Below are positions 22,906 through 60,224 of a DNA stretch of 64,000 nt, one piece after another. The stretch is from NCBI GenBank assembly GCA_025602905.1, contig JAHLKI010000003.1:1178001-1242000 (forward strand), read 5' to 3'. This DNA comes from Phlyctochytrium arcticum. Its lineage: Eukaryota; Chytridiomycota; Chytridiomycetes; Chytridiales; Chytridiaceae. Positions within the stretch are counted from its first letter, which is position 1. Each line of letters starts with the position of its first letter. The translations under genes and the position numbers were made by a program. The notes under the pieces are model-generated. The model was not told where the DNA came from. It made no database searches and saw nothing but the letters and a program-made list of their open reading frames with translations.

Positions 22906-22960
22906 CTGTATATTCCAAGTTAGCATGATATAATTTTATATGAATACAATCACCGGGTAC

Positions 22961-26560: not shown

Positions 26561-27340
26561 CTATAGTATCGAGTTGTTGCCAAGTTTGATCGTCCACTCT
26601 CCCACAATGCCGTCCTTGACTGCACTGTTTAGAATTGCCATATACGTGCAAACTGACTTTTTGCTTCCCTTGTTGCGCAATAAAACGCCCTCGTCTTTCG
26701 GTCTATACTCCCCATGGCACGCGCAGGGGTGCCAGATTTTGTGCACTGCAATGTCAGGCCCACCAATGCGCTTTTCTGTCAAGTTTGAAATGGCAAATCC
26801 GTTCTCCACAGCAAACTGCTTTAAAGCATGATCGGCTTCCTGAGATGTAGCAAATGGGCCCGAGGGGACATTCTCATCATTGTGTGAAACATTTTGTCTT
26901 CAATATTATCATACATCAGAGGTTGGGGCATCTGTAAGTTCATGCGTGACTACCTGATTGTCCAACTGACCATTGTGTGCCGCGCTATCACCATGTAAGC
27001 TGACGTTGGTAATGCCAATACTGGTATCTGCGCCTGCAATGAGTACATTAGACTTAAATAACGTGATAGGGAAAAAAATATTGTGATGTAGGCTGGCAGC
27101 AGTGGAAGTGACATGCCAGATTAGTTTGCGCAGTGGATTGCCAAATGTAGTTATATTAGCGGTCGAAGTTGTGTCCCAGTTGTGTACATATAGAGTCGAT
27201 GCCAGACCTCTGTTTGAGAGGTTGGACCTTACAACACATAGCGTGTGAACTACCTTGCGCGAACGAGAACGTGTGCCATCCATCCATCCATCCATCAAGA
27301 GGATTATCACGTTAAAAAATACATACCTTCGAATTGAGCC
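26561..27340 (-). pseudogene. FAR1/MULE-like DNA-binding fragment
   Basis: The right part has small exons (ATSKIQDNSECVQLTNVQAQFE; then GADTSIGITNVSLHGDSAAH). The left part reads FATSQEADHALKQFAVENGF, then KIWHPCACHGEYR, KGSKKSVCTYMA and GIVGEWTIKLGNN. The order (aromatic start, FA-ENGFA, Cys, Lys-Lys-x-x-Cys, W-I-K) fits the FAR1-type WRKY-GCM1 zinc fold found at the start of MULE transposases. The frame then hits a stop at 26561 and the transposase core is absent, so it is a truncated relic. Confidence 0.4.
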
Positions 27341-39462: not shown

Positions 39463-42400
39463 TCAGATGATTTTGGAAAAGACCACATTCTGAACTCCAT
39501 CGCCCGCATTTTCCGATCCAGTCACAATTTTAATTTTGTCTGGGTGACAACCTCGCGAAAGAGCCACATACAGCTGACCATGGGTGAAGACCTGAGTCCC
39601 CAAATATACGCCAACATGGTTGAAAGACTGTCCCTGGGACTTGTTGATGGTCATGGCAAATGCGCCAGTGACCGGGAACTGTTGCCGATACAAAGTAAAC
39701 AGCATCCGTGAATCACTGCCCCGATGTGTGATTTGCGGGATAAGAACCACATTGCCAGTGAAGGGCCCTTCAATGATTTGGCAGCGTAGACGCCGTTGCG
39801 ATACCACCTCAAGTAGTCGCAAGCGAGTTCCGTTTGACAAAGCACGCGAAGGGTTGAGGTTCCTGAGGAGCATGACAAACTGGCCAGGTTTGAGCTCAAG
39901 CTTGTGGGGAGGAAGTCCCGAAAGCTGCAGAGTATTGAGGAACTCTACAGGATAAGTAGAGGCGTCCTCTTGATCAACGTAGTCAGCGCTCAAGCACTCG
40001 CGGAAGTCACCAGGCAGACGTTCTACCACCCTACAATTGATCATCTGAGCGTCGTCATTCTTGACAGCGAGGATCACACAATCTTCAAAGTCAGTGCCGT
40101 CCGCAAAGATGTCATCGATCAAACCATCCAGGTTGTTCCCTGTAGCAACCAATGTTCACACACGCACCGTTTCTGCCCTCACCAACATCAAGTAGAAACT
40201 GCTGGAAGTCTGGCCGTGACTGCAGACGCATATTGATGGTCAAATTCATTGTTGTAACGTGACGCCAAAGGGGTGACTTTTTGAAACAGCGCCCAACTGT
40301 TGCCGACCGACCTCCTTGTAGAACAACTGGCAAAATTTGCCTGAAGTCACCTCCAAAGAGCATCACTTTGCCACCAAATGGCTTGTTGACATCAAGTGCA
40401 TCCCGAATAGTACGGTCAACCGCTTCAATCGCATATCGAGAAGCCATGGGTGCCTCGTCCCAGATGATCAAGTCAACCTCCCGAAGGGTGTTGGCAATTG
40501 CAGATCGAGGGCCAAAGTGACATGTACTTGTCTCGTTAAGCTCCAACGGAATAGCGAGATTGAATGTGCCGTTCTTCCATCATGAAGAAGACCCGCAGCA
40601 ATACCACTGCTGGCCATTGCCAAACACCGTAAGCCCTCTGAACGCATCGCGCGCAACAGCATATTGTAGACGTATGTCTTGTCGGTCCCGCCGGGCCCAT
40701 CCAAGAAGAAGACTCGCTCCTGAGAGGTTGCACCTTGACGGACAGAGTCCGCCACCCTCTCGAATACCGATCTCTGATCGACATTCAAAGTGTCAATGAG
40801 CTGAGCGATATCGGTGTCTTGTTCATTTTGGTTTAAATCTTCTTGAGCCCCATTGTCGTTCGGATCGAACCCTTCGGAGTAGAACTCTTCTAGGTTAATC
40901 CAAGTCGACATGCGCATATTGAACGGCTCCAAAAGCCGGTCCAAGTCTGCAATGACGCGGAATTGCCGTTGACCTTCCGACATGTCCCTCTGATCCTCGG
41001 CCATTGCTTCATAATGCTTATGAAACAGCCTTGCAACGTCTGCTGGTTCACTGAAGGCCACCATAGTGGCAAACAGCTTGCGGATCTGTGATGGCATGGA
41101 GGACACAGTTGCTTCCTCCAGACACGTATCATACTCAGTGTCATCCTCAAGGAGCCCTCGTGCAATCGCTGCCTCTTTGAACGTTTCATACAAAACGCCG
41201 TCGTGCGTTTGAAGATCCTCATAAGAGGTTGGCCCCCGTACATGACTCAACAGCATACGCAAGTGAGAACGGTCGCTCCCAGGAGGAGCCATGGTCATGC
41301 GAGCCACAACCTTCCATGCCCTCCTCCGACGTGTCCAAGGTTTTGGACCTTGGTTCCACCGATAGTGCTCGGGGAACTCACAATAAGTAAGACCTTCACC
41401 CGCTTGCTGCTGGAGCTCTTGGTTTGTACGGAAGAATTCGGTGAGCATAGGGTGCTCATTGTTCTCTACGGCAGCCTCAGGGGCAGCCGCATCAAACGTG
41501 ACATACTGCTGACCAGGCAGATGCACTGGAAGCCGAACGATATTGTGGCTAATACTGTTCGTTTTAAAGCTGAGCAAGCGCCAGCAGGCTTGCTGGGCGG
41601 AAATGTATCGCCCTTCTAGATATTGACTGATTTTGTCAATATCTTCACCCGCCTCGAGGACAGCTCGGTCCTGTCCTTTGTATATGTACTTATGTAAGTA
41701 CGTTACTGAGCTCACCGAGTTGCAGATTTCAACATTGATATGGCAGTCATACTTCCCGGTTAAGTACGGGTTGTATGGAATGATCCACTCCCTGCCAAGC
41801 TCGACGACTGTACCTCGCACACGTTTTTGGATTCGAGGACCACCACCTCGTCGCCGGTACGTAATCAAGCCATTGTCAGAGACAGTCGTAATTTCAGCGA
41901 GAGCCTTTGGGAACTTTTTGGAGCATGCACCGTCGACCATGCAGACATTTTGCGGATTGTCGTGTCCGCGTGGACCGTGCACCATGTGTGAATTAACGGA
42001 GGCGTACAGTCGGGGCTGAGTTTCGGGATCTGGGATCTCTGCACATACCATGCTGTCATACTGCTCCTCGGTCGGCTTTGATTCCAACCAAACCAAAAGG
42101 TGCGTGTGAGGAAGGCCACGCTTTTGGCACTCAACGGTGTAACAATACAGTAAGCCTGCACCTTGCCAAAGACACTCTTTTTCACATTGTCGTCCAACAT
42201 GTTTTGGAACTTCATGTGAAAGACGCGAACAACAATGTCGGGACGGTCTTGTGCCTTCTGGTGAGGAAGCAACAGGCGGGTGATTTCGGGCCACTTCGAT
42301 TGCAGGTCATCGTAATGAACAGATCCGGCTTGCCAAACTTGCGAACCAAAGCTATAGAATCTTGTAACCTTTGCTGCATGTACCGAGGTGACCCGATTGT

Positions 42401-42691: not shown

Positions 42692-42812
42692 TGTCCAAAT
42701 CCTATACAAAGGAGGCCTTCCCTGCCCTGCTCTGATCAACAAGAAACACATTCCCGAGGCATTCTCCTATTGCTCCTATTGAGCAAGTCCCAATTAGTGA
42801 GAACCTCCATTA
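42692..42812 (+). repeat. copia 5' LTR
   Basis: Starts TGTCCAAATCC, ends CTCCATTA. It has CTATACAAAGG where the 3' copy has CTATAAAAAGG, a probable TATA box. TG...TA ends are slightly unusual. Confidence 0.85.
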
Positions 42813-42925
42813 GGTTCTGAGAACCTGAGCCCCTCCTACTGCCTATCTGTGCCATTATCACCAGAAGCGTTTTTTCCCCATTGTCTATTTTCCCAGTTCC
42901 GTCTCTTGTTTTCCACCACCGTGCG

Positions 42926-44098
42926 ATGCCAAACCTCCCAAGGTTGCCACAAAATACGCCTGATCAACGTCCGCGCGATTCACAAGGCCGTTTCCAAGCT
43001 GTAACATCTGTTACTGAAACGGAGGCAAGCACCTACGTGGATCCTGATATCATTGAGGAACAAGGTCAAGACATGCACGCTCCCACCACTCAAGTCCTTG
43101 ACGACACATCTCAAGATCCCATGATGGATCAAGCCACATATACCTCCACTTCTCACCGTCAAAGTCTGCATCCCACCTTGAGGCAATTTGAAACCGTTTT
43201 TGAAGCAAGGATGAATGCCAAACTCGAAGCATTCACGGAGCGATTTATGTCCTTGTTTTATGAGATGGAACACAACCGAAACAACTTCAACTATGCTCCA
43301 TCTCCTGCTCCCAGTCTTGCAGCTGCAACCGAAGGAGCAAAGCCCCTCCACAAGAAGCTCCTTGACAGCATTCCCAAATTCTCTGGAGACATGGGCGACA
43401 CCCAAAAGTTATTTGAGTTTATTGAACGGCTTGAGGTTTACTTCCAGTCTGTTGAACTCACCCAAGAAGAACGCCTTCAGCTCGCCGTTAGTCAACTAGT
43501 CGGGTTCGCTTGATTGGCCTGGCGTGCACATTGCAAGAACTATAGCTCCACCTCACCCGAACGGATTACCACATGGTCTGCACTATCCAACATGTTGATT
43601 AGTTATGTCGCACCTCAGGACCATGCCGATCGGATCCGAGCCGCTATTCTTCAACTTCCCAACAATAAGGGTGTACAGGAGTACACTAAGGCGTTCAACA
43701 AACTATATCTTCAGCTACCGGATATCCAAGAATCGGAGGCCATCTTTCTGTACAAGTATCGGTTAGATAAGAACATCCGGGATATGGTCAGCACAAACAA
43801 CAACAACCTTACCTCTCTTGAACAACTTCAGTGGGCATCTCTCCTCAGGACCGCACTCAGCCAAAACGCCATGATGAAGCATTGCCTGTGTCAGACTCCA
43901 CCAAAAACGACAAGGGAAAGCAACCTGCTGTTCAAGGTCAAGGTCACCATCACAACCAGAAGTCCGGGAAGCAACCCCGAATTTCCTACCCTTGCTCGTG
44001 GTGTGGAAGCCAAGCTCACCAAACTCACGAATGCTCGGAAATGTTGGCAGCCCGGGGTCGTGCCGGTCCGTCAAGCTCGGTCAAGAAGCCTTCCGCTA
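42926..44098 (+). pseudogene. copia gag
   Basis: ATG 42926 (MPNLPRLPQNTPDQR). The gag core is LLDSIPKFSGDMGDTQKLFE; after an in-frame TGA (43511-43513) it continues LISYVAPQDHADRIRAAILQ and LPDIQESEAIFLYKYRLDKN. A frameshift near 43880 moves to the frame with a zinc knuckle CSWCGSQAHQTHEC near 44000. Gag and protease are continuous in the latter frame. Confidence 0.7.
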
Positions 44099-45623
44099 TG
44101 ATTGCCACCACCTCTGAGGAAGCTTCCTTCATCCTGGATTCTGGTGCTACACAGCATATGACCAACAATATTTCTGTTCTGCAAGGCTATGTTCCGGGAA
44201 GCTCAAGTGTCATTATTGGGGATGACTCTGAAATTCCTGCATCTGGTCTTGGTTCGGTTGAGTTTTTGAATACGGATTCAAGGTTGGAGAACGTGCTTCA
44301 TGTACCTTCGTTGGTATCCAATCTCATCTCGGTCCGTTCTCTCAACAAGTCTGGTCAAGCAGTAGTCTTCACACCAGACAGAAATGCCTTTGTTTGTGAA
44401 GGTTCAGCATTTGAATCAAACGCTCCGGAAACTGCTATCGCTCAAGGACAACTGTCTGGGAAACAGTACCGGTTCATCCACAAACGTTTATGGCAACAAG
44501 CGACATTGATATTGACACTACAAAGGACTTGCGCCGACTCTGGCATCATCGTTATGGGCACCTCAACATGCGGTCTTTGGCGAAAATACCCTCAATTGTC
44601 GATCATGTATCGGATGTCGATCTCTCTTTTGAACCGGATCGTCAGTGTTATGGATGTGGTGTGGGCAAATCAACTCGGTTACCTTTTGGCACAGAAACTC
44701 GTCGGGCAACCAAACCACTCCAAGTCATCCACTCTGACCTGTGCGGTCCGCAACGCATTCGCTCTCTTACTGGAGCACTTTATGTCATCACCTTCATTGA
44801 CAATTACTCTCGCATGGGTTTCGTGTACTTTCGGGAAAAGAAGAGTGATACGTTTGAATGTTTCAAGCTATTTCGGTCAATGGTTGAGGCCGAAACAGGG
44901 GAGAAGATTGGGTGCTTGCGAACCGACAACGGTGGTGAATATACGAGCAATGCATTTGAGGCCTATTTGGAGGAGCATGGTATCCGTCATGAAACATCAA
45001 CCCCCAATACCCCTCAGCAAAACGGAGTTGCGGAACAATTCAACTTGACAATTTTCAACATGGTCCGTGCCCTTATCCACCACTTCCGCATTCCTCAAGT
45101 CTTATGGGCGCAACTTGTTCAAACGGTCGTGTACCTCCGCAACCGTAGTCCCACCAAGGCGACTCACAACATCACTCCTTATGAACGCTGGCACAAGTCT
45201 CGTCCTACGGTCGGGCACCTCCGCGCTATCTGGTCTCCCGCTTATGTCCACGACACGTCTTCGAAAAGAGGAAAACTGGATCCGAAGGCTTCTCGATGTT
45301 ACTTGCTTGGGTATCTTGAGAAGAAGAAAGCATATGTTCTCTGGGACCCCACAGTTCACAACCTTCGAATTAGTCGTGATGTTGTCTTTGACGAAGCCAG
45401 TGCCTTGGAGTCGCATGTCGAAGGACCAAGTGGTGATACTGAAGATCCAAACTTGGTGTCTTCTGATCCTGGTGATGATGACACTCCTGTTGAACGTATT
45501 CTTGATGAAAGGGAAAACAATGACGGCGTGGTTCAATACTTGGTCCGTTGGGAAGGATGCACTTCTGAAGACGACTCTTGGGAACCCGTCACTGTTGTAC
45601 TTGGACCTGCTCTGGAGGACTAG
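44099..45623 (+). pseudogene. copia protease, integrase and embedded chromodomain-like module
   Basis: The protease active site is FILDSGATQHM (near 44130). A frameshift near 44495 moves into LWHHRYGHLNMRSLAKI (integrase HHCC), CYGCGVGKS, the core acidic residues in IHSDLCGP, CLRTDNGGEYTS and TPQQNGVAEQFN, then RCYLLGYLEKKKAYVLWD. At 45490-45600 comes TPVERILDERENNDGVVQYL followed by VRWEGCTSEDDSWEP, which reads as a chromodomain. TAG 45621-45623 then interrupts the frame before RT. A chromodomain is normal for Ty3/gypsy integrases but unexpected between integrase and RT of a copia element. Confidence 0.75.
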
Positions 45624-46423
45624 GAGTCAGCACAAGCGTATGTTACCGCCACTGCCCTGGAACCACCTACCTATGCAAGAGCGTTGGCTTCTCCTGATCG
45701 TCTCAAGCGGCTCAACGCCATTAACTCGGAACTCGCATCTCTGGACAAGCTCGGCACATGGACTGTGATAGATCAACTACCTCCCGGACGCAAAGCTATC
45801 GGCAGCAAGTGGATATTCAAGGTCAATATCGACAGTTCTGGCAACACTAGTCGCTACAAAGCTCGTCTTGTCGCACTCGGACACACCCAACGTCCCAGAA
45901 TCGACTTCGATGAAACATTTGCACCTGTTGTTCGTTTCTCCGCTCTCCGTACTCTTCTTGCTTTCGCCGCCGCAAACAGCCTCGAGGTACACCAGATGGA
46001 TGTACAAACAGCATTTCTTTACGGCAGTCTTGATGAAGACATCTACATGCGTGCCCCCCAAAGATCTCCTCAGGAAGGCCGGATTGTCAAGCTTCGTCGT
46101 GGTCTCTATGGCCTAAAACAGTCCCCACGTATCTGGAACCGTGAGCTTGACTGTTTTCTTCTCGACCTTGGTTTCATTCCGACGCCCGCCGATCCTTGTA
46201 TCTATCTTCGCCTCGAAGACAAGGCTATTATCGCCCTCTACGTGGACGACCTGATCTTGATTGCTCAAACTCTTCCCATTATCAACACTGTCAAAATCGC
46301 CCATGCCAAAAAATTCGCCATGACCAATTTAGGGGAGGTCGAGTGGTGTCTGGGTGTCAAGGTTTCTCGCAATCGTCAGGATCGTACTCTTATTATGCAC
46401 CAAGAACTTTACGTCAACCAAAT
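45624..46423 (+). pseudogene. copia reverse transcriptase, first part
   Basis: Continues the integrase frame after the TAG: LEPPTYARALASPDRLK, GTWTVIDQLPPGRKAIGSKW, FDETFAPVVRFSALR, HQMDVQTAFLYGSLDEDIYM, GLYGLKQSPRIW and the catalytic ALYVDDLILIA (near 46235). It is cut at 46423 by gypsy-2 within codons for VNQI. The reading resumes at 52514. Confidence 0.85.
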
Positions 46424-46760
46424 TGTAGTAAACCTTGTGTACTTTGGGCTCTTGAAGTAATACAAGTTACTGTTGTGTTTTGTTTGTGATTGTGTGTGTG
46501 TGGAATTCGACGTTGAGAGTTCTCCTCCCTCCGTCCGGTGTCCTTTCTCCTTTATTATGCTCTCTCGGAGCGGTAGCACACTCATTGGCCTAGCCGGAAT
46601 GGGTGTGGCTACTACTGAGAGCAGCGGGGATTCATGCGGTTCGCCGGAGGCTTAGCTACGCGATCCTCACGTGCTATGGACGGAGCCTACCGCACTCATC
46701 ACTATGACAACGAGGACATTAACTGCTTACACAATACAGTTCACACTAATTCCATTACAC
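46424..46760 (-). repeat. gypsy-2 3' LTR
   Basis: On the plus strand TGTAGTAAACC ... CCATTACA. Compared with the right LTR it has C for T near 46511, G for A near 46596, and one extra T near 46741. Confidence 0.92.
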
Positions 46761-47020
46761 CCCCCTCAGACTTGTACCAACTTTTGAGATACCTAGTCCT
46801 CGCAAAACGGACAAAGGTACAAGTCTCTCATGGTAAAGTTAGGAGCTGTATGGTCAACCAATAACTTGAATCGAGCCCGGATGCACAAAGCATTGGCCCA
46901 TCGGATGAGAAACGAGATGTCTAATCCCGGACAGTTCTCATGTCAATCCGAAGCTAAAATAAAACCAAATACAATGGGGCAACAGCTTGAGGGTCAGATC
47001 ACTCAAGAACAACTCACAAC

Positions 47021-47136
47021 GGCTTGATGAATCAGTCAATCAAGAAAACGGCTTGATGAATCAATCAATCAAGAAAACGGCTTGATGAATCAATCAATCA
47101 AGAAACTACGGCTTGATGAATCAATCAATCAAGAAC
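47021..47136 (+). repeat. 29-bp tandem repeat in gypsy-2 3' UTR
   Basis: Four head-to-tail copies of GGCTTGATGAATCAATCAAT plus CAAGAAAAC, of 29, 29, 31 and about 27 bp. There are no unique spacers, so this is not a CRISPR array. Confidence 0.85.
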
Positions 47137-47383
47137 AGTTCATGCGCTCGTATCCCTCAACGGTGGCTCAACAGCCAAGGATACCTCACTCAGTTTAACA
47201 TCCCTTCCCACCAAGACTGATCAGGTCAAGGTGACAGCCTCGAAGACGAACACTCATCGGACTAACGCACGCGAAAGTAAAGTGTTTCTTGTGTAAAGAC
47301 GGTACACAAACGAATACAGGCTGATCGCATCCTACGGATACAAGGAATCCACCAAGGCTCAATCGACCTCGCGCCGCACATCG

Positions 47384-48506
47384 TCAACCCCGTCGGGTCC
47401 GACGAATCTTCGCTGGCTTTGTGATGGGTCTACGGTTGCGCCGGGCATTCAACCACTCTTTGAATGCATCCGTGTCCCTCAAATTCTCTTCTGGCTCCCA
47501 GGTGTTGTCCTCTGGGCCATACCCAGTCCACTGCACCAAGTACCGCTTCTGATCTCAATACTTCTTCTCAGCCAGAATTTTGTGGACCAAATACACGGTC
47601 GCACCATCCAGTTGCATCATTTTCGGACGTTCGGACTTGTGGCGTAAGCTACTTTTGTCGGGAGGGTGGTATGGCTTCAGGATCGACACATGAAATACCG
47701 GGTACATCGCCTTGAATTGCATTGTCAGCTCAAGTTCGTACGTTTCTGGGTGCCGACCTTCGCCCTTGACCTTGAACGGCCCAACCCATTGGTCTGACAT
47801 TTTTTTGTTGTAGCCCCGTCACTCCCTCAACGTTGAGTTCTGTCCTATCCAGCAACACTTTGTCGCCTTTTTGGAACGTAGCGGTCTTGCGTCGGTGGTC
47901 GTAGTTCCTTGCTTGCTTGTCTTGCTCTTTCAGCATCGCTTCACGAACTAGTTTGCCAACGACATCATAACCGTCTTTCAGCAACTGCAACTGTGCTGCA
48001 TCCTCTTGACACAGCTTCTCCTTGGATCGGCCCTTGCTGCTTTCCTTCATCGTCATCGGCCCAAATCTCGGGATTCTCAACATATCAATCTCGAACGGTG
48101 AAAGACCGGTCACCGTCGGTGTCTGGTTGATGTTGAACTCCATGATTGGCAGCAGATCGACCCAATTTGTGCCGGCATAATCCAGATATGGCCTCATCAG
48201 GACCTTCACTGTCCGAATCATCCGTTCGCACTTTCCGTCCGTTTGTTGATGCCGGGCGGTACTGATTGCACTTTCAACAGTCGTCATCTTCATCAACTCT
48301 CGCCAGAATTTCGATGTCCATTTCGGATCTCTGTCGCTCACGCTCATTTCTGGTAAGCTGAAGTTCTTGACAACGTTGTAAATAAACAAATGGGCTAATT
48401 CCTTGGTATCGGCAGTGCGGGTCGTCGGAATCAATACTACTCTCGACGACAGATAATCCACTACCACCAGGACGGCGTCTTTCAACTCTTCAGCGCTCCT
48501 ATCATC
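47384..48506 (-). pseudogene. gypsy-2 integrase C-terminal half and chromodomain
   Basis: Follows TGA 48507-48509 in the same frame: KDAVLVVVDYLSSRVVLIPT, the second acidic residue in MSVSDRDPKWTSKFW, and TARHQQTDGKCERMIRTVK with the third. A frameshift near 47805, at a run of Ts, shifts to DQWVGPFKVKGEGRHPETYE and FHVSILKPYH. TGA 47555-47557 sits in the chromodomain, which reads VHKILAEKKY, stop, [20 protein letters not shown]. It ends at TGA 47384-47386. Confidence 0.85.
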
Positions 48507-50678
48507 TCACCCACCCCAAGACGTCGTCGGTGGGAGAAAAGCAATGTCCATTCCAATATGCGCCCATCGGTGCTCCGGTATCGGTAATGATCGCAAAAAT
48601 CCCAGTTTCGTCTTCGGGTTCTTGGTACGCTGACATTTGTCACAGGAACGTACGTAGTGGAAAACATCGTCCACTAGCTGTGGCCAGTACCATCGAGCAA
48701 GCAATTTCCGTAGAGTCCTGGATTGACCGGAGTGACCGCTGGTGACCAAAGCATCATGGTGGATATTCAACACAGAGCCACGGCAAACTTCCGGGACATA
48801 GATTCGATCTGCGTGATACAACACACCATCACGAAGACTGTAGCGGCGAATCGACATCGTGTGCTGGGATTTGTCTGTCTGTGTCAACTTCTTGGCCACC
48901 TCACGGGCATGGTCGTCACTCGCTAGCATCTTCTTCCAGGTATTGGATCCAACTTCAGGCATGGTCGGGACTGCTTCTCCGGCAACAATATGCATGACCT
49001 CCACACGGGCTGCACAGCGAGAACACTTCGGGGCATACGCCGGGTTACGACTAAGCACGTCAGCAACCGTATTCCACTCTCCGGGCAGATACTCAATATC
49101 GAAATCGAATTCCTGGAGTACCTCTACCCATCGAGCCTGTCGCCGACTCAAGTTTGGTTGTTGCTGTAGGAAGGTCAACGATCGGTGGTCGCTGAAGCAT
49201 CGAAAACGGCGTCCAACTAGGTATGGACGAAACGACCGCAACGTTTTGACCAACGCTAACAATTCCTGTTCGTGGACGGGATAACGAGTCTCCGCATCCT
49301 GCAACTTCCGCGCGAAGTACGATATCGGACGTAACTTCGGTAGATTCCTGAGCCCGGTGATTGTCAATGGTAACGGGGACAGCAACACATCATCGTCCTG
49401 AGCCGGTTGAGCCAACCATCCTGATATTGCAAATCCTGATGCATCGGTATACACGTACGTTGGCTTGCTTGGGTCGAACGGTGCCAAGGTGGGTGCTGAG
49501 CTGATGGCGTTCTTCAATGCACTAAATGCTGCCTCTTCTTCTTCGCCCCACTTGAACACACTTTGGGGTGACTGTAGCTGCGACAACGGCAATGCTATTT
49601 CGGCATACCGATCCACATATTTGCTCAGGTAATTCGTCATTCCCAAAAATGACGCAACCTCACGCCAATTCGAAGGTCGTCCCCACTCCTGCACCGCTTG
49701 AATCTTGCTTGGGGCAATCCTGAATCCTTTGGCCGACACAACATGGCCACAGAATTCTACTTTGGGGACCGCCCATGCGCATTTCGACGGTTTCACAAAC
49801 AATTTGTGGTCCTGGAGGCGCTTCAATACGGCATCGACATGCTGTCGATGTTCTTCGAGGGTGTCCGAGTAAATCAGAATGTCGTCCAAATACGACACTA
49901 CGAACTTGTCGAAGAGGTCTCCAAGAATCTTGTTCATCATGCGTTGGAACGTCGCCGGCGCATTTGTCAACCCAAATGGCATCACCAAGTATTCAAAGTG
50001 TCCGAACCGAGTCCTAAAGGCTGTTTTCTCGATATCGTCAGGGTGTATTCTGATGCGATGATATGCATCCCTGATGTCAACACTGGTGAAGTACTTCTTT
50101 CCGGTGAGCCGGTCTCCGAGTTCCGCAAGATTCGGCAAGGGTGTACGATCCTTTTTCGTCTGGGCATTCAGCCTTCGGTAATCTATGCAGCAGCGGAGCC
50201 CGCCATCTTTCTTCTTGGCGAACAATACCGCGGCACCCCACGGAGATTCCGAATGTCGTATCCATCCCTTGTTCAATAAACTTTCGATCTGTTTCCTGAG
50301 CTCTCCATTCTCATCCTCGGCCATGTGTCGTAAGGGTAGGAATGCAGGCTTCGACCCGGGGAGCATCTCGATTTGAAAGTTGTCTTCCCCTCGGTCCGGC
50401 GGTAGATCCGTATTTTCTCGGAATAGATCATGGCGGTATTTCTCTAGTACCGTCCTCAACGGCTGATCTTGTGCTATCGGTTCCAATGGATCCATTTGAA
50501 CCGGTTGTACTAACTGGGCTTCATCCCAGCGTCGTACCAATACTGCAAACACCTGAGCGACACTTTTCTTCGGGACCAATCTCGCCAGTTGGGACTCTGT
50601 CAGTACCCAAGAGAATGGTTTTTGTCGCCGGAGTGAACCTTGATCGTGTTCTACCCCATTCCCGGAGGTGTGCTGCAT
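48507..50678 (-). pseudogene. gypsy-2 RT, RNase H and integrase N-terminal half
   Basis: A 723-codon open frame. RT: WGAAVLFAKKKDGGLRCCID, MPFGLTNAPATFQRMMNKIL, catalytic SYLDDILIYSD. RNase H: VYTDASGFAISGWLAQPAQD and DIEYLPGEWNTVADVLSRN. Integrase zinc site: HHDALVTSGHSGQS ... CDKCQR, then the first catalytic Asp in IGMDIAFLPP. It stops at TGA 48507-48509, in frame with the rest of the integrase. Entry from the protease frame requires a shift near 50640. Confidence 0.88.
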
Positions 50679-51162
50679 TGCATGTGGGCTTCTCCCACCT
50701 TCGGTTCGTGGGTTTTGCTGTCAATCGCATTCGTTCCCCTGGCTTGTGCGTGAACTCCATGTAACGGTGACCTCGCTCGTCCTTCAATGACAAGTCGTTC
50801 AGCCACTTGAACAGTGGTAGGCCAAGAATCAAGTCCACGCGTAGCGGAGCCAGGAGAAACACCTTCGACTTGACTTCAGCATTCCCCTTCCCGAAATCCC
50901 CTTTCAATACCACATCAACCACCGCCACTTCGCTTCCTGCAAAAACGCCCCCTGAGTTTCCCCAATTGACGGGTACCTCCTCAATTCGATGGATACGTGC
51001 TCCAATCTTTTTGGCGTACGCCCGGTCCATCATCGACGTATTACATCCACAATCGATCAGTGTTTTTGCCAGCCTTCCATTCACCCTCGTATACACCACG
51101 AAGGGATCCTCAATCTCTAGTTCCGGCTCGACCATTTTTTCAACGTCGAGAGGCGGGGGCAC
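50521..51162 (-). pseudogene. gypsy-2 protease with DCG in place of DTG/DSG
   Basis: Aspartic protease domain: TLIDCGCNTSMM near residues 34-45, then VFLLAPLRVDLILGLPLF. The catalytic triplet reads Asp-Cys-Gly where retroviral-type proteases have Asp-Thr/Ser-Gly; gypsy-1 has DTG at the same place. The downstream stretch CNAAHLR is shared with gypsy-1. The frame ends in 50521 after overlapping the RT frame. Confidence 0.75.
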
Positions 51163-51182
51163 GATCGCTGCACTCGCCTCAA

Positions 51183-52160
51183 CTAAAAATCCTTGCGGGA
51201 GGGTCCGGCTTGCGCCTGCGAAGCGTTCACCGTCGGTTTGGCTCTGGGTTGCGGGCAGGCTTTGGCAATGTGACCAAAACCGTTACAATTGTAGCAGCGG
51301 ACTTGTCGGGGCTTGAATTTCTTCTTTGCCGGTCCGTTGGTTTCGGCATGGTTGACTTGGGGTTTGTTGTTGCCTCGATGCGCGTTGCCATCCCTGGGTC
51401 GATTGTCGATTTCCTTCTTGTCATGGAAACCGGACTTCTGGAAGGCACGATCCGCGGCCTCCATCAACTTATCCAGGGGAAGATCGGTTACCACCAACGC
51501 GGCAAGTAACGCATCGGCAATAGTGGCGCCACCCCTAGGTCCATATCTCAATCCTGTGATATAGTACTTCTCAATATCCGACTGCGGAATGGGGTCGTTT
51601 CCCGACGATAGCTCTGCGGCATCGACCAATCGTTTGAACTCAGTATTGAACTTGGTGATGGAGCCATCGTATCACATGTTCTTCAGTCGGTGTCTGGCAT
51701 CGTCTTTCTGGGTGGTGCCTACGAAGTGCGCTTGCATCTTCGTCAACAATTCGTCGGCTGTCGCGGGAAGAGTGTTCGCCTTCTCCATATCGCCGAACCA
51801 TCGGGCTGCGTCGTTGGTCAAGTGCTGCCCAATGTAAAGGATTCGAGTGTGTTCCTTCAATCTCGCGACCGTGTTGTAGCGTCTGAACTGTTTGATGAAC
51901 GTCTCCAACACGTTTGCGTCTCTGGTGCCGTCAAACTTCGGCAACTTGGCATAGAGACGTTTCTCCGACTGCTTGTCGTCGGCCTCGTCGTCGCTGGAAT
52001 CATGCACTCTCTTGCTGCGCAATACTCTGTTTGCTGCTTCCAAGGCCTCAATCCGGCGCAACAATACTTCGAGGGTAGCATCAGTCGGGGCGGTGCTTGC
52101 ACTGGTTTTCCCCTTGTCTCCGGTGATGTTTCCCTCGGTAGTTCCTTTGTCTGTATCCAT
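51183..52160 (-). pseudogene. gypsy-2 gag
   Basis: ATG 52160 (MDTDKGTTEG) lies 5 bases past the PBS. A coiled-coil start (LEVLLRRIEALEAANRVL) is followed by the capsid core (YAKLPKFDGTRDANVLETFI, AARWFGDMEKANTLP). TGA 51672-51674 interrupts, then YDGSITKFNTEFKRLVDAAE and one zinc knuckle CYNCNGFGHIAKAC before TAG 51183. One stop is the only lesion. Confidence 0.85.
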
Positions 52161-52164
52161 TGTA

Positions 52165-52177
52165 GGTGGTGCTACCA
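52165..52177 (-). other. gypsy-2 primer-binding site
   Basis: Reads TGGTAGCACCACC on the minus strand, directly after the 5' LTR; same as gypsy-1. Confidence 0.8.
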
Positions 52178-52513
52178 TGTAGTAAACCTTGTGTACTTTG
52201 GGCTCTTGAAGTAATACAAGTTACTGTTGTGTTTTGTTTGTGATTGTGTGTGTGTGGAATTCGATGTTGAGAGTTCTCCTCCCTCCGTCCGGTGTCCTTT
52301 CTCCTTTATTATGCTCTCTCGGAGCGGTAGCACACTCATTGGCCTAGCCAGAATGGGTGTGGCTACTACTGAGAGCAGCGGGGATTCATGCGGTTCGCCG
52401 GAGGCTTAGCTACGCGATCCTCACGTGCTATGGACGGAGCCTACCGCACTCATCACTATGACAACGAGGACATTAACTGCTTACACAATACAGTTCACAC
52501 TAATTCCATTACA
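52178..52513 (-). repeat. gypsy-2 5' LTR
   Basis: 336 bp, plus-strand ends TGTAGTAAACC and CCATTACA; pairs with 46424-46760. Both substitutions between the copies are C:G to T:A at CpG sites. Confidence 0.92.
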
Positions 52514-53317
52514 CAAATACTGGAACGATTCGGGATGGCCAACTCCAACTGAGTTTCAACTCCGATGGAAGTCTCCTCCCTTCTCACCAAGAATTCCAAC
52601 AACGACACTGTTCTTGATTCCACCAATATACGACTTTATCAACAAATGGTCGGAAGCGTTATGTATCTGATGATGGGAACAAGACCCAATATCAGCAACA
52701 CCGTATCCATCCTGAGCCAATTTTCAGCAAACCCGACTCAAGCGCATCTTCAAGCCGCAAAACGTCTTTTACGCTACCTCAAGGGGACTTCTTCCTTGGC
52801 TCTGCAGTATGGTCCGGATTCCACCAACAACAATATTTTTCAAGCATATTCCGACGCCAATTGGGGCGGTAACCTCTCGACAAGAAGATCCACCACCGGA
52901 TATGTTTTCATTCTCAACGGCTCCCCGTTTTCATGGTCCAGCAAGCGTCAACAATCGGTTGCTCTGTCCACTGCCGAGGCCGAGTACATGGCTGCCGCGC
53001 ACACAACTCGCGAATGCGTATGGCTCAGAAGGTTACTCCACAACGTATGCTACCCCCAAGACGGTCCCACTACCATTTTCGGAGACAACCAGGCTTGCAT
53101 TGCCATGTCCAAGAATCCCGTACACCACACACGAACAAAGCACATAGACATGCGCTACCATTTTGTTCGCGAACAAGTTGCGGACGGCACAGTCACGATG
53201 AGCTACATCCCAACACGCGACATGTTAGCCGATTCACTGACCAAGCCAGTCCCAGCCAAACTCCTACTTCAGCACACACTCGCCATGGGACTCGTTGACA
53301 GCCGTGAGAAGCGCTAG
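52514..53317 (+). pseudogene. copia RT end and RNase H
   Basis: Resumes in frame after gypsy-2: LERFGMANSN, TGA 52550-52552, then VSTPMEVSSLL. The RT end is GSVMYLMMGTRPNISNTVSI. RNase H: QAYSDANWGGNLSTRRSTTG, QQSVALSTAEAEYMAAA, IFGDNQACIAMSKNP and the end TKHIDMRYHFVREQV ... LTKPVPAK. Stops at TAG 53315-53317. The stop codon is followed by GGGAGTGTTGGAAATACAAC, which resembles a PPT plus LTR start, but no 5' partner exists. Confidence 0.85.
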
Positions 53318-53603
53318 GGGAGTGTTGGAAATACAACTGTTTCCTACCACCTCACCATTTGATTCCACGTCATGAGCCCTTCCACGAGTACGCATCACCC
53401 ATCTCTAGTGCCCACGAAGTCGCAATTATGGGCTTGAAATCATCCCGATTTCATCCATCATGGCTTTGTGTTCTCTTTCGATTCTTTCCCCATTATTACC
53501 ATTCTTAGTCTCTTCCATGAGCACATATCTTTTATCTTGGATTTCCTGCTTTGAAATCCCATATCCTTTCCCATATGTTTTCACATGTAGTCTTTTGTTT
53601 GCA
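53318..53603 (+). other. copia 3' untranslated region
   Basis: About 290 bp, pyrimidine-rich, with no gene, between the pol stop and the Crypton-like unit. It continues after that unit at about 55499. Confidence 0.5.
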
Positions 53604-53750
53604 TAATACCACAGGTGGTACTATTTCTCGAGGGCTTTTCAAACTCAAATAAACCTGGGGGCACAGTCAAGAAAAGAGACGCGCACATCGGCACAGTCAG
53701 GCGGATCTGGGCACAGCCATGTCCCAGCACAGGGCTATTTCAGCAACGAG

Positions 53751-53777
53751 CAGGGCTATTTCACTGAAATAGCCCTG
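53751..53777. repeat. 13-bp inverted repeat, CAGGGCTATTTCA
   Basis: Arms 53751-53763 and 53765-53777 around one C. A third copy of AGGGCTATTTCA lies at 53731-53742, and related GGGCTATTT words recur in the foldback repeat at 55.5 kb. Confidence 0.75.
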
Positions 53778-53913
53778 TGGCAAAGTCACGCTAAGTGGCG
53801 GCAAAGTCATGTAATTCCGTCGCAAAGAAAAGCGACAAAATAGCCCCGCGATCTCCGCGATCTAGATCATTTCAATCTCTTCTCCCAAACCCATCCTATT
53901 ACCACCATAACCT

Positions 53914-55406
53914 ATGCCCAGACTCACGCTTTGTCTTCCTGCCCGACCCGCAGGGCCCATTTTAACAAAGAGCGCGCAACCTGCCAATCAGACGCGTGAA
54001 AAATCGGATTTGGAAGAAGATGAGATCCCTCTAGTACCTGGACCTGCAGCCCAGCGAACCACTGTACCTCTTAAACGCCCTATCTCAGCGGTAGAAGTCT
54101 CGGAGAACAGCGACAGACCGTACCAACAAGTCCCTCAGGAAGAAATTTCGGCGATGAAGGAAACGAACCGAAACGGGAATACGCAAGCGAGCACCAATAC
54201 ATGGGTCAGGAAATGGGAGGTGTACAAGAGCTGCCTGCCTGAAAATTTCGACGATGCAACGGTATCTAAAAAAGAACTTAATCATCATATGGAGCAGTTT
54301 ATTAGCCAAGTTCGTCAGCAAAATCAGCAAGAACTCAAAGATTCGAGTCTAAACATATGCTACGGCGCTATGGGTCGCTATTTCAAAGAGCTCAGAGAGC
54401 TTGACGGCGAATCTTTTAATATTCATAGTGATGTGGAGTTTAGCGGTGCCCAGAAAGTTCTCAATGCGCGGCTGAAGCGACTGCAACAGGAAGGTCACAC
54501 CAGCACGAAGTCCGCCGACAACTTCACGAAGGAGGAATTGGAACGCCTACTGGATTCACAGTTTTGCAATCCGTCTACCCCCGCCGGCTTGTTGCATCGC
54601 GTGTACATCCATGTGGCATTATATCTGGTCGAGAGAGGTGGGAGCCCCTGGACCTTGTTGTTAAAAGAAAGATTGATGAAAATGGGCGTTGCTATTTCCG
54701 ACGAACGAAGCACGTTGACAAAAACAACCAAGGAGGAAAGAAAGCAGTTGGCCGTGAACCTAGAATCAACGTTATTCCACCTGGACCTGCCGCGGCAGAT
54801 GTTGACAAGTACCTTCTCAAACGTTTAAACTGCGATCATCAGAAATTCTTTCTTTCCCCTAATTATCAAGGAGTTCGACCTGACGGTAGCGGTAATTGGT
54901 ACAAAAATGGTGCAGTTGGCAAAAACAGGATGGCAACCTGGGTAAAATCTGCATGTGAAAGTGCAAAGATTGACCCAAGAGGTCGTAAGTTGGTGCCGCA
55001 TTTGTTTCGGAGCACGGCGACCACAGCCATCTTGGAGGCAGGTGTCCATCAGGATACAGCTATGAAGCTCAGTGGTCACCGCAGTGTGGAAGGACTCTCG
55101 CATTACAATAAGATGACCGACGAGAAGCGCATTGCAGTAATGACAGCGATGTCTAGTAATACAGTCGCTCAAGTTGCTGCCGTCGCCGGGAGTAGCGACC
55201 CAGTTGCCGTCGTTGCCGGGAGTAGCGAGTCACAGATTGCGATATCAAGCTCTATCAGTGAAGAACACCGTAGTATTGTCAGAAAGGATGCTGTCGGAGA
55301 GGAGCATCAGAGCCTGGTCGTTAGAGACACGATGACTGCACCGGTCCCTACGTTCACCTTCAGTGGTAGCTTCAACAACGTAACTTTTAACATTCAGCAG
55401 AGATAG
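53914..55406 (+). pseudogene. Crypton-type tyrosine recombinase (no GCR1 tail)
   Basis: ATG 53914. The N-terminal 100 residues are low-complexity; the core-binding part is NTWVRKWEVYKSCL ... LNICYGAMGRYFKEL. A one-base frameshift near 54640 joins to RERWEPLDLVVKRKIDENGR and FRRTKHVDKNNQGGKK. The catalytic box is HLFRSTATTAIL (HxxR), then LSGHRSVEGLSHYNK with His and the nucleophile Tyr. It ends at TAG 55404-55406. It resembles the Crypton/KIAA1958/ZMYM-type recombinases rather than the Ndc10-like Crypton at 7.7-10.3 kb, so two Crypton lineages coexist. One frameshift is the only lesion. Confidence 0.7.
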
Positions 55407-55500
55407 ATTTATATTTGTTAGGAAGTATCTGTAGACGTTTGTCAAATATCATAGTTTCTGTAGTCGTACCCACTCGAAAAGTACCTCCAGTGGTATTAAT

Positions 55501-55695
55501 CAGTTATACACCCTTGCTTTGGTCGGGCTATTTGGAATAAATAGGGCCACTCGGGCCGCTGCAGTCGCACTCGTGCAGCGTAATAGCCCTCGACCTGCGG
55601 TCTCGGGCGATTAGGGTTGCTGCACTCGGGCGCCTGCGACGCGTCCCTCGTGGCCCTATGTATTCCAAATAGCCCTCCAAGCCGGGGTATAACTG
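55501..55695. repeat. foldback (MITE-like) repeat
   Basis: Left arm CAGTTATAC ... GGGCTATTTGGAATAAATAG (55501-55548) and right arm reversed CAGTTATAC ... GGGCTATTTGGAATACATAG (55695-55652), about 45-bp arms with two small gaps. The centre is GC-rich with repeated CTCGGGC. No coding capacity; target duplication unclear. Confidence 0.65.
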
Positions 55696-55736
55696 GTACA
55701 AACTATATTCTGTACTTTATATTTTCTCAGAGTGCC

Positions 55737-55753
55737 GGGGGGGGGGGGGGGGA
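55737..55753 (+). other. copia polypurine tract (16 G then A)
   Basis: Directly precedes the 3' LTR, as expected for a plus-strand priming site. The exact G count may be affected by sequencing. Confidence 0.6.
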
Positions 55754-55874
55754 TGTCCAAATCCTATAAAAAGGAGGCCTTCCCTGCCCTGCTCTGATCA
55801 ACAAGAAACACATTCCCGAGGCATTCTCCTATTGCTCCTATTGAGCAAGTCCCAATTAGTGAGAACCTCCATTA
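55754..55874 (+). repeat. copia 3' LTR
   Basis: Pairs with 42692-42812 at 120 of 121 positions and is followed by CCTAC, the target duplication. Confidence 0.85.
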
Positions 55875-55955
55875 CCTACAACCATGCCAAGAACGCCGTA
55901 TCAGAAAATCCGCACTTTTCAAGCTCAGCAACATGAAAGCAAATTTAAATCATAC

Positions 55956-56745
55956 CTTGCGGGAAGAACAATGGATATGATCGGGCATTGTACATGGGAT
56001 GACATTCATTGATCTGCTTCAAGCCAACACCACGCTTGCAAAATACGATGTCCCGGTTTGTAACATGCTCGTCATTGAGCCATAACGCAGCGACCTCCGG
56101 AGCAGCAGCCGCGCTATAACGACGGCGATGTTCACCAGCTGGTACAGCGGACCCGTTGATACTAAGAACAATGTTAGTAGTACTCTGAGCCATTTCTCGC
56201 GCTGCAACAAACCGTTGAACCAAGGCGTTCTCAGTCTGCATTGCGTCGTGGATAGTTGCCACCACCATAGGCCGGAGGTCGGAGAAAATCTCTAAACGTC
56301 GAGAGCTTTGAGCCTCCGTGTCCAAAAAGTAAATTTGAGAAAACTTGGGCAGTTCCCTGTCTACGGCCTCCAATCCATCCCCAATCCAGTGATACAGCTC
56401 ACCGTTGACCCGGAAAGTGTAGATGCTATCCCGGTCGCTCGCCAAGTTCAAGTCAAGATTGCTGGACATGCTGGTAAACGCAAAGGCTTGGTTGTATTTT
56501 CGGATGTGTGCGAGGAACTCTTTAGAGTCGTTCGTGGCTCCTGAAAACAACGGCTGTAAAGCTGCATGTGGAGAAACATGGCCTACATCATCACCTTTGG
56601 TTTTGCTGTTATGGCAGCAGATTGAAGCCTTCTCGGCCTTCCACCTGAATGCGCCGCAGCTTCTGCACTCGCAATTCATATCGCCCGCATCAAACAGAGT
56701 TGCACTGTCCCGAAATTGCTCAATAGAGCAAATTGCAACAGCCAT
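55956..56745 (-). pseudogene. Helitron A N-terminal exon
   Basis: ATG 56745 (MAVAICSIEQFRD). A Cys cluster CECRSCGAFRWKAE ... CC opens the Helitron N-terminal region, followed by HAALQPLFSG, YNQAFAFTSM, RDIVFCKRGVGLKQI and the typical end YNARSYPLFFPQ. A GTATGA donor begins at 55955. The native acceptor TTGTAG lies at 55881-55876, but its exon was moved 13.2 kb away by the copia. The exon itself is open. Expected role: DNA binding upstream of the nickase. Confidence 0.75.
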
Positions 56746-56816
56746 AGTTAAAGGTCTTTGTGTGTGTGTATTTATTGTTGTGTGATAAAGAGAGTGGGGG
56801 AGCGGAGGGAGCTCTG

Positions 56817-56826
56817 CCTTATATAC
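56817..56826 (-). promoter_or_regulatory. TATA box of Helitron A
   Basis: GGTATATAAGG on the minus strand, about 75 bases upstream of ATG 56745 and inside the proposed Helitron 5' end. Position fits a fungal core promoter. Confidence 0.45.
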
Positions 56827-56976
56827 CGCGTGTCCGAAGGCTGGCCCTGTCCGGACAGTAATTGATTACGGCAGCCAGCCAAGCCACCTGATAAGTCATG
56901 TTGCGACCAACATTTTTTAGTAGTAGGATCTTGTCATCAAGGCTAGACTCAAAAAGATGCAATCACCGTTGAACAT

Positions 56977-59185: not shown

Positions 59186-60224
59186 ATGCATTGCCTTTTC
59201 CAAGACACTATCAACAGTGTTCAGGTCCAGCTTCAGGCTGGCCTTTCTACTCAAAAAATTGCTCAGCAACTAGGCATTAGCAACGCCAGCGCCTCAAACA
59301 TTAGGTCCCAATACCTCTCTGAGCTTCCCAAACCTTCTGCTGGCTGGCCCAAGTGCCTTACCCCTCGAGATGTCAGCCGTGCCCTTTCTCTCATTGGTTC
59401 TGGTGATGCAGAGACTGCCCCTCAAGTCGCTTAAGTCCTTCCGGATGCTACCAACAACCCCGTTTCATCTTCTATTGTTCATCGGGAGCTCAAGGGTGCT
59501 GGTTTGAAGGATGCTGTCAAGAAGAAGAAGCCTCTTTTGAAGAGAAAGTATGTCAAGGATCGCCTGGATTGGGCTCATGCCCATTCCTCCTGGACCTTGG
59601 AAGATTGGAAGCGTGTTGTATGGTCAGATGAGACGAAGATCAATCGTATTGGGTCTGATTGGCGTCAGTGGGTGTGGAAGAGGCCCGGGGAGGGGCTTAC
59701 AGAACGGTCAGTCAGCAGCACTGTGAAGTTTGGGGGTGGAAGCATCATGGTGTGGGGCTGTATGATGTGGTATGGGGTTGGATATGCTGCAAAGATCGAC
59801 GGTCGGATGGATGCTATTCTTTATGTCGACATTTTGAGGGAGGATCTTGGGAATAGTCTCGAATTTTACGGTCTGACCCCAGAAGATATGATTTTCCAGC
59901 AAGATGGTGATCCAAAGCACACTAGCAGACTTGCCAAAGGATTCCTCAGGGACAACAAGTATGAAGTCATGGAGTGGCCCGGGCAATCTCCCGACCTCAA
60001 TCCAATTGAACATCTATGGGACCATTGCAAAAGGCAGGTTTGCAATTACCCTGAACCCCCCTCATCAATCCATGAACTGTGGGACCGTGTTCAGAAGGAA
60101 AGTGTGCCAAAACCTTATCGAGAGCATGCCACGGAGGGTTCAGGCTGTCTTGAAAGCCAATGGGAGGCACACAAAGTACAGTACTGATTTCAGGAAAAAA
60201 TGGTATGTGAATCAAAATTGTTAA
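59186..60224 (+). pseudogene. Tc1/mariner DDE transposase
   Basis: ATG 59186. A helix-turn-helix start (LSTQKIAQQLGISNASASNI) is cut by TAA 59432-59434, then LKRKYVKDRLDWAHAH. Catalytic Asp in VWSDETKINRIG, VWKRPGEG, GGGSIMVWGCM, second Asp in FQQDGDPKHTS, and the third acidic residue in SPDLNPIEHLWD, with about 34 residues between the last two (DD34E). A frameshift near 60113 leads to IESMPRRVQAVLKANGRHTK and the stop at 60222-60224. One stop and one shift inactivate it. Confidence 0.88.

What the first reader, a model, noticed from the sequence alone, without database searches (positions are those of the whole stretch)
45484..45620. Chromodomain-like module in a Ty1/copia polyprotein
Between the integrase and RT of the copia element the frame reads TPVERILDERENNDGVVQYL then VRWEGCTSEDDSWEP, with the aromatic residues and spacing of a chromodomain (Tyr-Leu-Val-x-Trp-x-Gly, Trp-Glu-Pro). 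Chromodomains are characteristic of Ty3/gypsy chromovirus integrases, where both gypsy elements here also have one at the C-terminus. In copia it would have to be read through into RT, so it may target integration to heterochromatin in a lineage not known for it.
Basis: partly seen in the sequence, partly recalled or inferred. Interest (0 to 1): 0.75.

Follow-up and report, generated by a model that had tools for sequence, protein, structure and literature searches.

The report
Chromodomain-bearing copia retrotransposon lineage in fungi
A jumping element of the Ty1/copia type in a probable zoosporic fungus carries a real chromatin-reading chromodomain behind its integrase, and its relatives show that this is an old, inherited part of a whole lineage, although nothing shows yet where it steers integration.

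Summary
The chromodomain is real (PF00385, 45.4 bits, cut-off 25.1) and lies in one frame after rve and SH3_retrovirus; RVT_2 follows in the same frame beyond a stop. It is not a local chimera: 19 of 30 copia loci cut from this genome carry it between IN and RT, one with LTRs differing at 1 of 257 bases and an open 922-aa frame. Seven of seven public proteins scanned show the same order. On an IN+RT tree without chromodomain columns all 20 chromodomain rows form one clade, 100/100; RT alone needs three changes, without starred conflict. Diatom CoDi-A/CoDi-I copia elements were already reported with an integrase chromodomain (PMC2774666, PMC5348765), so this is a new variant. Heterochromatin targeting is not shown: this copy is broken, its aromatic cage reads T-W-C, and flanks of 11 sites of a young family gave it no support. 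A full cage survives in 16 of 16 matched public relatives.

The parts
42692..42812 (+). left 121-nt terminal repeat of the copia insertion
   Evidence: 121-nt direct repeat with 55754-55874, one mismatch; CCTAC lies outside both ends
43514..44098 (+). copia gag piece, Ty3/gypsy-like
   Evidence: PF03732 E 3.4e-8, over its cut-off; PF19259 E 9.6e-5, below its cut-off; a stop separates it from 42821-43510 in the same frame
44128..44355 (+). Pol_BBD domain ahead of integrase
   Evidence: PF22936 E 4e-18
44709..45014 (+). integrase core (rve)
   Evidence: PF00665 E 1.7e-16
45192..45401 (+). integrase SH3-like domain
   Evidence: PF25597 E 5.4e-23
45489..45590 (+). chromodomain; aromatic-cage positions read T, W, C
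   Evidence: PF00385, 45.4 bits, cut-off 25.1; cage by alignment
45621..45623 (+). stop codon that ends the integrase-chromodomain frame in this copy
45624..46423 (+). copia reverse transcriptase, same frame, up to the gypsy insertion
   Evidence: PF07727 E 2.3e-62; gypsy LTR starts at 46424
46424..52513 (-). nested Ty3/gypsy element with its own C-terminal chromodomain
   Evidence: LTRs at 46424 and 52178, about 336 nt, 2 differences in the first 300; CAAAT on both sides; RVT_1, RNase H and H2C2 domains on the minus strand
52514..53314 (+). rest of copia RT and RNase H
   Evidence: frame resumes beyond the gypsy element, copia RNase H-like by eye; 52553-53314 gives no Pfam hit at E 1
55754..55874 (+). 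right 121-nt terminal repeat of the copia insertion

Best explanation
This is a decayed copy of a Ty1/copia retrotransposon from a lineage that acquired, once and long ago, a chromodomain behind the SH3-like domain of its integrase, and that also carries a Ty3-like gag. Shown: the domain, its position, its presence in many copies and in public relatives, a single clade on IN+RT, and constraint on it. Inferred: the polyprotein is cut downstream of the chromodomain, so that mature integrase carries it on a flexible C-terminal tail. That tail would bind a chromatin partner and bias where the cDNA is inserted, as chromovirus chromodomains do. In public relatives the complete cage suggests methyl-lysine histone binding. 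In this genome's two families the cage is eroded, so the domain more likely reads another partner or has changed specificity. I put about 0.95 on the lineage claim, about 0.55 on a targeting role, and about 0.2 on H3K9me heterochromatin targeting by this genome's copies.
For: Order rve-SH3-Chromo-RVT_2 in P0002 and P0003 of this genome and in 7 of 7 public proteins scanned, rve incomplete in two of them. 19 of 30 copia loci carry the domain, 11 give no hit to a profile of public relatives; one of the 19, L027, is weak, E 0.0074. One clade of 20 of 20 chromodomain rows, 100/100, in 100% of 200 bootstrap trees. Between L036 and L034 synonymous change is saturated (pS 0.83, 0.84, 0.81 for IN, chromodomain, RT) while pN is 0.12, 0.11, 0.10. 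L057: LTRs differ at 1 of 257 bases, 922-aa frame open through the domain. AlphaFold model of P0012: three strands and a C-terminal helix in 234-286, block pLDDT 81-87 over 231-280, between segments under 50. PDB matches by sequence are HP1, CDYL, MPP8, Clr4 and Polycomb-type chromodomains. The host has a chromo-shadow hit about 0.5 kb from a weak chromo hit, which looks HP1-like.
Against: RT alone needs three changes of the chromodomain label rather than one. In deeper pairs the chromodomain changes faster than IN and RT: pN 0.40 against 0.24 and 0.22 for L036/L030, 0.28 against 0.17 and 0.21 for L023/L025. No copy of this genome matched by the cage script has the full Y/F-W-Y cage. The flanks examined show no sign of heterochromatin. 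The H3K9 methyltransferase marker Pre-SET gives one hit, below its cut-off. Protease cleavage was not tested.
Confidence: 0.75

Rival explanations
1. Local chimera: a gypsy chromodomain was dropped into one copia copy by recombination or nested insertion.
For: Two gypsy elements with chromodomains lie in the same window.
Against: The domain lies in the same place in 19 of 30 copia loci and in 7 of 7 public proteins scanned. In the chromodomain tree the window's domain groups with copia copies (4 rows, 99/95), not with the window's gypsy domain.
Confidence: 0.02
2. The chromodomain is a vestige of an old capture, with no present role in this genome.
For: Cage residues are lost in this genome's copies; group A copies are mostly broken; the domain changes faster than IN and RT in deep pairs.
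Against: The young family keeps it in open frames in several copies with near-identical LTRs, and for L036/L034 its pN equals that of IN and RT at saturated synonymous change.
Confidence: 0.2
3. The domain works in something other than target choice, for example integrase stability, multimerisation, nuclear retention or nucleic-acid binding.
For: Two of three cage positions are not the usual aromatics in the window copy, and group B keeps only the W; the flanks examined show no chromatin preference.
Against: The public relatives keep a full cage in 16 of 16 matched rows, which fits methyl-lysine reading in the lineage at large.
Confidence: 0.25
4. The fungal lineage and the diatom CoDi-A/CoDi-I lineage are one, with one ancient copia capture.
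For: Same architecture as described (PMC2774666 and PMC5348765, passages).
Against: None direct: no CoDi sequence was in hand.
Confidence: 0.25

Closest known systems
CoDi-A / CoDi-I Ty1/copia elements of diatoms (Phaeodactylum)
   Same: copia pol with a putative chromodomain at the integrase C-terminus (PMC2774666 and PMC5348765, passages)
   Different: other host kingdom; common descent not tested here; the gag type of CoDi elements was not looked at
Ty3/gypsy chromoviruses (MAGGY, Tcn1-like and others)
   Same: chromodomain appended to integrase; a Ty3-type gag
   Different: here integrase precedes RT and RT is RVT_2 (copia), so the domain lies inside the polyprotein and not at its end
Chronos Ty3/gypsy elements of oomycetes and the chromodomain gypsy lineages of Ectocarpus
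   Same: acquisition of a chromodomain by an LTR retrotransposon outside the chromoviruses (PMC5348765 and PMC12477816, passages)
   Different: those are gypsy elements with the domain at the end of pol
GlCEN427 centromeric copia element of the fungus Ganoderma leucocontextum (PMC10817607, passages)
   Same: a fungal copia element with a special chromosomal place
   Different: the passages list GAG, INT, RT and RH only; its sequence was not compared, so a chromodomain in it is neither shown nor excluded
Yeast Ty1 and Ty5 integrase C-terminal targeting tails (recalled, from no call)
   Same: copia-type integrase whose C-terminal tail contacts a host factor that sets target choice
   Different: short peptide motifs there, a folded chromodomain here

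Membership tests
Chromodomain (PF00385) | profile match above the curated cut-off | tested here: met
   45.4 bits against 25.1
Chromodomain (PF00385) | three strands and a C-terminal helix | tested here: met
   model of relative P0012; in the window copy the stop falls about where the helix lies in relatives, and the window's own segment was not modelled
H3K9me reader, complete cage (Y24, W45, Y48; residues named in PMC3350952, passages) | aromatic residues at the three cage positions | tested here: not met
   window T-W-C; other group A copies I, Y or F-W-C; group B keeps the W only at the aligned positions (L032 and L033 have a Y one place off); 16 of 16 matched public relatives Y/F-W-Y, P0126 not matched by the script
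Ty1/copia (Pseudoviridae) | integrase upstream of RT, RT of RVT_2 type | tested here: met
Ty1/copia (Pseudoviridae) | copia-type gag (PF14223), customary rather than defining | tested here: not met
   PF03732 and PF19259 instead; all 4 of 120 listed rows with PF03732 are chromodomain rows
Ty3/gypsy chromovirus | integrase downstream of RT and RNase H, RVT_1 | tested here: not met
CoDi-A / CoDi-I copia | copia pol with integrase chromodomain | tested here: met
   architecture only
CoDi-A / CoDi-I copia | falls in the CoDi clade on RT | not tested
   no CoDi sequence in hand

The most novel reading that the evidence does not exclude
A previously undescribed, widely spread lineage of LTR retrotransposons in fungi that is a mosaic of the two superfamilies: Ty3-type capsid, copia pol, and a chromodomain inside the polyprotein. 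It arose once, keeps a complete methyl-lysine cage in the public relatives, and has rewritten that cage in this genome, which makes it a natural experiment on how an integrase changes its chromatin target.
Probability: 0.4. Interest if true: 0.72.

Novelty: new variant of a known kind. Interest (0 to 1): 0.52.

Why it matters
In the passages seen here the only copia elements reported with an integrase chromodomain are those of diatoms (PMC5348765 and PMC2774666). A fungal lineage with its own clade, a Ty3-like gag and cage variants within one genome would show that chromatin-reading integrase tails have entered LTR retrotransposons repeatedly. It also gives related elements with complete and eroded cages, so that the link between cage and target choice can be tested.

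Tried and rejected
Local chimera rejected. Origin of the domain from this genome's gypsy elements could not be settled: the 63-column chromodomain tree of 30 rows separates copia from gypsy in 70% of bootstrap trees, support 66/51.

Flank test: 700 bp on each side of 11 group B sites (22 flanks) and of 10 sites of a non-chromodomain copia family (19 flanks, one missing), against 66 frames from known elements. Two group B flanks matched, both to chromodomain copia frames, so those two sites are probably truncated copies; two control flanks matched other element frames. The 11 sites are not all that one search lists: the C39 pair, C3:1205079, C4:1245335, the split LTR at C2:1508915, and the weak pieces on C25, C15 and C6 were left out. 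C3:1205079 is window 27079-27314, inside this nest of elements; its own 700-bp flanks gave no library match, though a recombinase-like frame lies about 0.5 kb away, by eye. The test sees only coding homology to a small library: it is weak evidence against nesting in elements and none about histone marks.

No tRNA gene in any of 37 loci scanned, 21 of them the group B element and flanks (ARAGORN with the bacterial code). Whole-model Foldseek search returned RT and integrase chains in the 50 rows shown and said nothing on the chromodomain. NCBIfam gave only transposase models below their cut-offs. The upstream frame of L034 gave no gag match. Literature searches showed no fungal copia chromodomain in the rows listed; most were cut to the best rows, and the library lacks most subscription journals. 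Repbase could not be searched. One search used an off-frame query by my mistake and was redone.

Full report
Observation. The frame 44415-45620 on the + strand reads rve (44709-45014), SH3_retrovirus (45192-45401) and Chromo (about 45489-45590), then a TAG stop at 45621-45623; RVT_2 follows beyond it in the same frame. The chromodomain match is 45.4 bits, E 7.5e-12 on the segment alone, against a cut-off of 25.1 bits. Its PDB matches by sequence include chromodomains of CDYL, CDY, MPP8, HP1/CBX, Clr4 and Polycomb proteins.

State of this copy. It is a decayed copy. Its gag has a stop at 43511-43513, its pol changes frame, and a gypsy element (LTRs at 46424 and 52178, CAAAT on both sides) lies inside RT. 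The copia insertion is bounded by 121-nt repeats with CCTAC outside both ends. Helitron-like frames on the minus strand lie on either side of it (Helitron by eye).

Copies in the same genome. One search covered the genome with the window's integrase-to-chromodomain piece (the domain was part of the query, which favours loci that have it) and listed 119 matches, of which the best 30 were cut out (L022-L051). A profile built from public relatives finds the domain in 19 of these 30 and not in 11 (L028, L041, L043-L051); L027 is weak, E 0.0074. Reading by eye gave the same split. Group A has 6 loci with the window, the other five 52-55% identical to it over the matched stretch; group B has 13, at 36-41%. 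L024 is cut short inside the domain, L026 has it in another frame than its integrase, L031 and L037 are broken inside it, and L040 and L042 change frame before it. L023, L025, L030, L034, L035, L036, L038 and L039 are open through the domain into RT. L057, a group B element, has 257-nt LTRs that differ at one base, a first frame of 618 aa and a second of 922 aa. Its LTR is matched at 29 places or pieces.

Relatives elsewhere. In one search, 10 of the 120 listed rows carry PF00385, each together with RVT_2 and SH3_retrovirus. add P0124-P0130. One of them bears a fungal name, Powellomyces hirtus (P0126). P0006 is labelled Ktedonobacteraceae, probably a misassigned contig (inference). Scans of seven such proteins give the order rve - SH3 - Chromo - RVT_2 in all seven, rve incomplete in P0010 and P0012, and preceded by gag, Pol_BBD and gag_pre-integrs in P0004, P0005, P0009 and P0013.

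One lineage. On 467 kept columns of integrase and RT, without the chromodomain, all 20 chromodomain rows out of 51 form one clade, 100/100, in 100% of 200 bootstrap trees. RT alone (53 rows) needs three changes, with the window's RT beside group B and one Ustilago row beside L023 and L025; its starred branches do not exclude one origin. The non-chromodomain rows were picked from the hits and from this genome, so the sample is not even.

A mosaic gag. The lineage's gag is Ty3-like: PF03732 over its cut-off in the window, L025, L030 and L036, and PF19259 over its cut-off in L036. The L052 piece falls just under the cut-off for PF03732 and the L034 upstream frame gave nothing. Both families are found over their cut-offs in P0004, P0005, P0009 and P0013. 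All four PF03732 rows among the 120 are chromodomain rows, and none of the chromodomain rows lists the copia-type PF14223. The lineage's gags resemble one another more than the window's gypsy gags (tiny database, so only the bit scores count). The gags of this genome's copias without the domain were not examined.

Constraint. Between L036 and L034, pS is 0.83, 0.84 and 0.81 and pN is 0.12, 0.11 and 0.10 for IN, chromodomain and RT. Deeper pairs show a faster chromodomain: L036/L030 0.40 against 0.24 and 0.22; L034/L030 0.37 against 0.24 and 0.22; L023/L025 0.28 against 0.17 and 0.21; L030/L032 0.17 against 0.10 and 0.15. Synonymous sites are saturated in most of these pairs, so I give no ratios.

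Cage. Using the residues Y24, W45 and Y48 named in PMC3350952 (passages), 16 of 16 matched public relatives read Y/F-W-Y; P0126 was not matched by the script. The window reads T-W-C, L003 I-W-C, L023 Y-W-C and L025 F-W-C; group B keeps only the W at the aligned positions, with a Y one place off in L032 and L033 (positions set by my alignment). L024 and L027 were not matched by the script. The model of P0012 shows three strands and a helix within 234-286, block pLDDT 81-87 over 231-280, between two stretches under 50, which fits a tethered domain (mean pLDDT of the whole model only 64.6).

Host. The genome has IFT46 matches over the cut-off at two loci and 30 matches to a chitin synthase family, 28 over the cut-off. 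That family also rings in 4 of 14 bacterial control genomes, so it is not specific by itself. Together with the Powellomyces hit they suggest a zoosporic fungus (inference). An HP1-like gene is suggested by a chromo-shadow hit at C2:81988 and a weak chromo hit with a stop in it at C2:81437. Pre-SET gives one hit below its cut-off.

Targeting. At nine of eleven group B sites examined, 4-5 bases are repeated on both sides, as expected of integration; the two exceptions look like truncated copies. Apart from these two, no flank matched the element library, and some hold gene-like frames by eye. Other group B sites were left out, one of them inside this window's nest of elements (window 27079-27314). 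This gives no support to a heterochromatin preference in this genome; it is a weak test.

Literature. Copia chromodomains are reported in diatoms: CoDi-A in PMC2774666 and CoDi-I in PMC5348765 (passages). The latter, of 2017, says that a chromodomain had been shown before only for chromoviruses and CoDi-I. PMC5445492, on copia diversity in filamentous ascomycetes, has no occurrence of 'chromo' in its main text. Passages of PMC3248453 link fungal chromodomains to gypsy. PMC10817607 describes a centromeric copia in a Ganoderma mushroom with GAG, INT, RT and RH only (passages). I saw no report of a fungal copia chromodomain in the rows listed, but I cannot exclude one in Repbase or in papers not held.

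Verdict. The lineage is a new variant of a known kind. The heterochromatin claim remains open and is unlikely for this copy.

Noticed in passing
window 53318-55753: Between the copia RNase H end and the right terminal repeat lie frames with QRICH1-like (weak, below cut-off) and Phage_integrase (E 9e-8) matches, a Crypton-like element perhaps; a purine run and TG just after the copia stop look like a second LTR start.
   Followed up: partly
window 40468-42306 and 55945-56865, minus strand: Helitron-like frames (by eye) on both sides of the copia insertion: copia seems to sit in a Helitron, and the gypsy in the copia.
   Followed up: partly
window 27079-27314: A 97%-identical LTR of the young group B chromodomain copia family, about 0.5 kb from a recombinase-like frame on the minus strand (by eye).
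   Followed up: partly
window 46981-47136: Five similar 30-nt units (67-97% to the reference copy) inside the nested gypsy element.
   Followed up: no
window 59435-60184: Tc1/mariner-type transposase frame (DDE_3, HTH_Tnp_Tc3_2).
   Followed up: no
window 20643-22916, minus strand: PIF1-like helicase frame, perhaps of a Helitron.
   Followed up: no
L057 5879-6999: Two copies of a repeat about 617 nt apart directly beside a young group B insertion; F-box-like gene frame on the minus strand by eye.
   Followed up: no
L078 and L086: Flanks of two different group B insertions encode similar protein frames, by eye, so the element may have inserted twice beside members of one gene family; L078 has no Pfam match.
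   Followed up: partly
P0006: A chromodomain copia polyprotein filed under a Ktedonobacteraceae metagenome bin, probably eukaryotic contamination.
   Followed up: no
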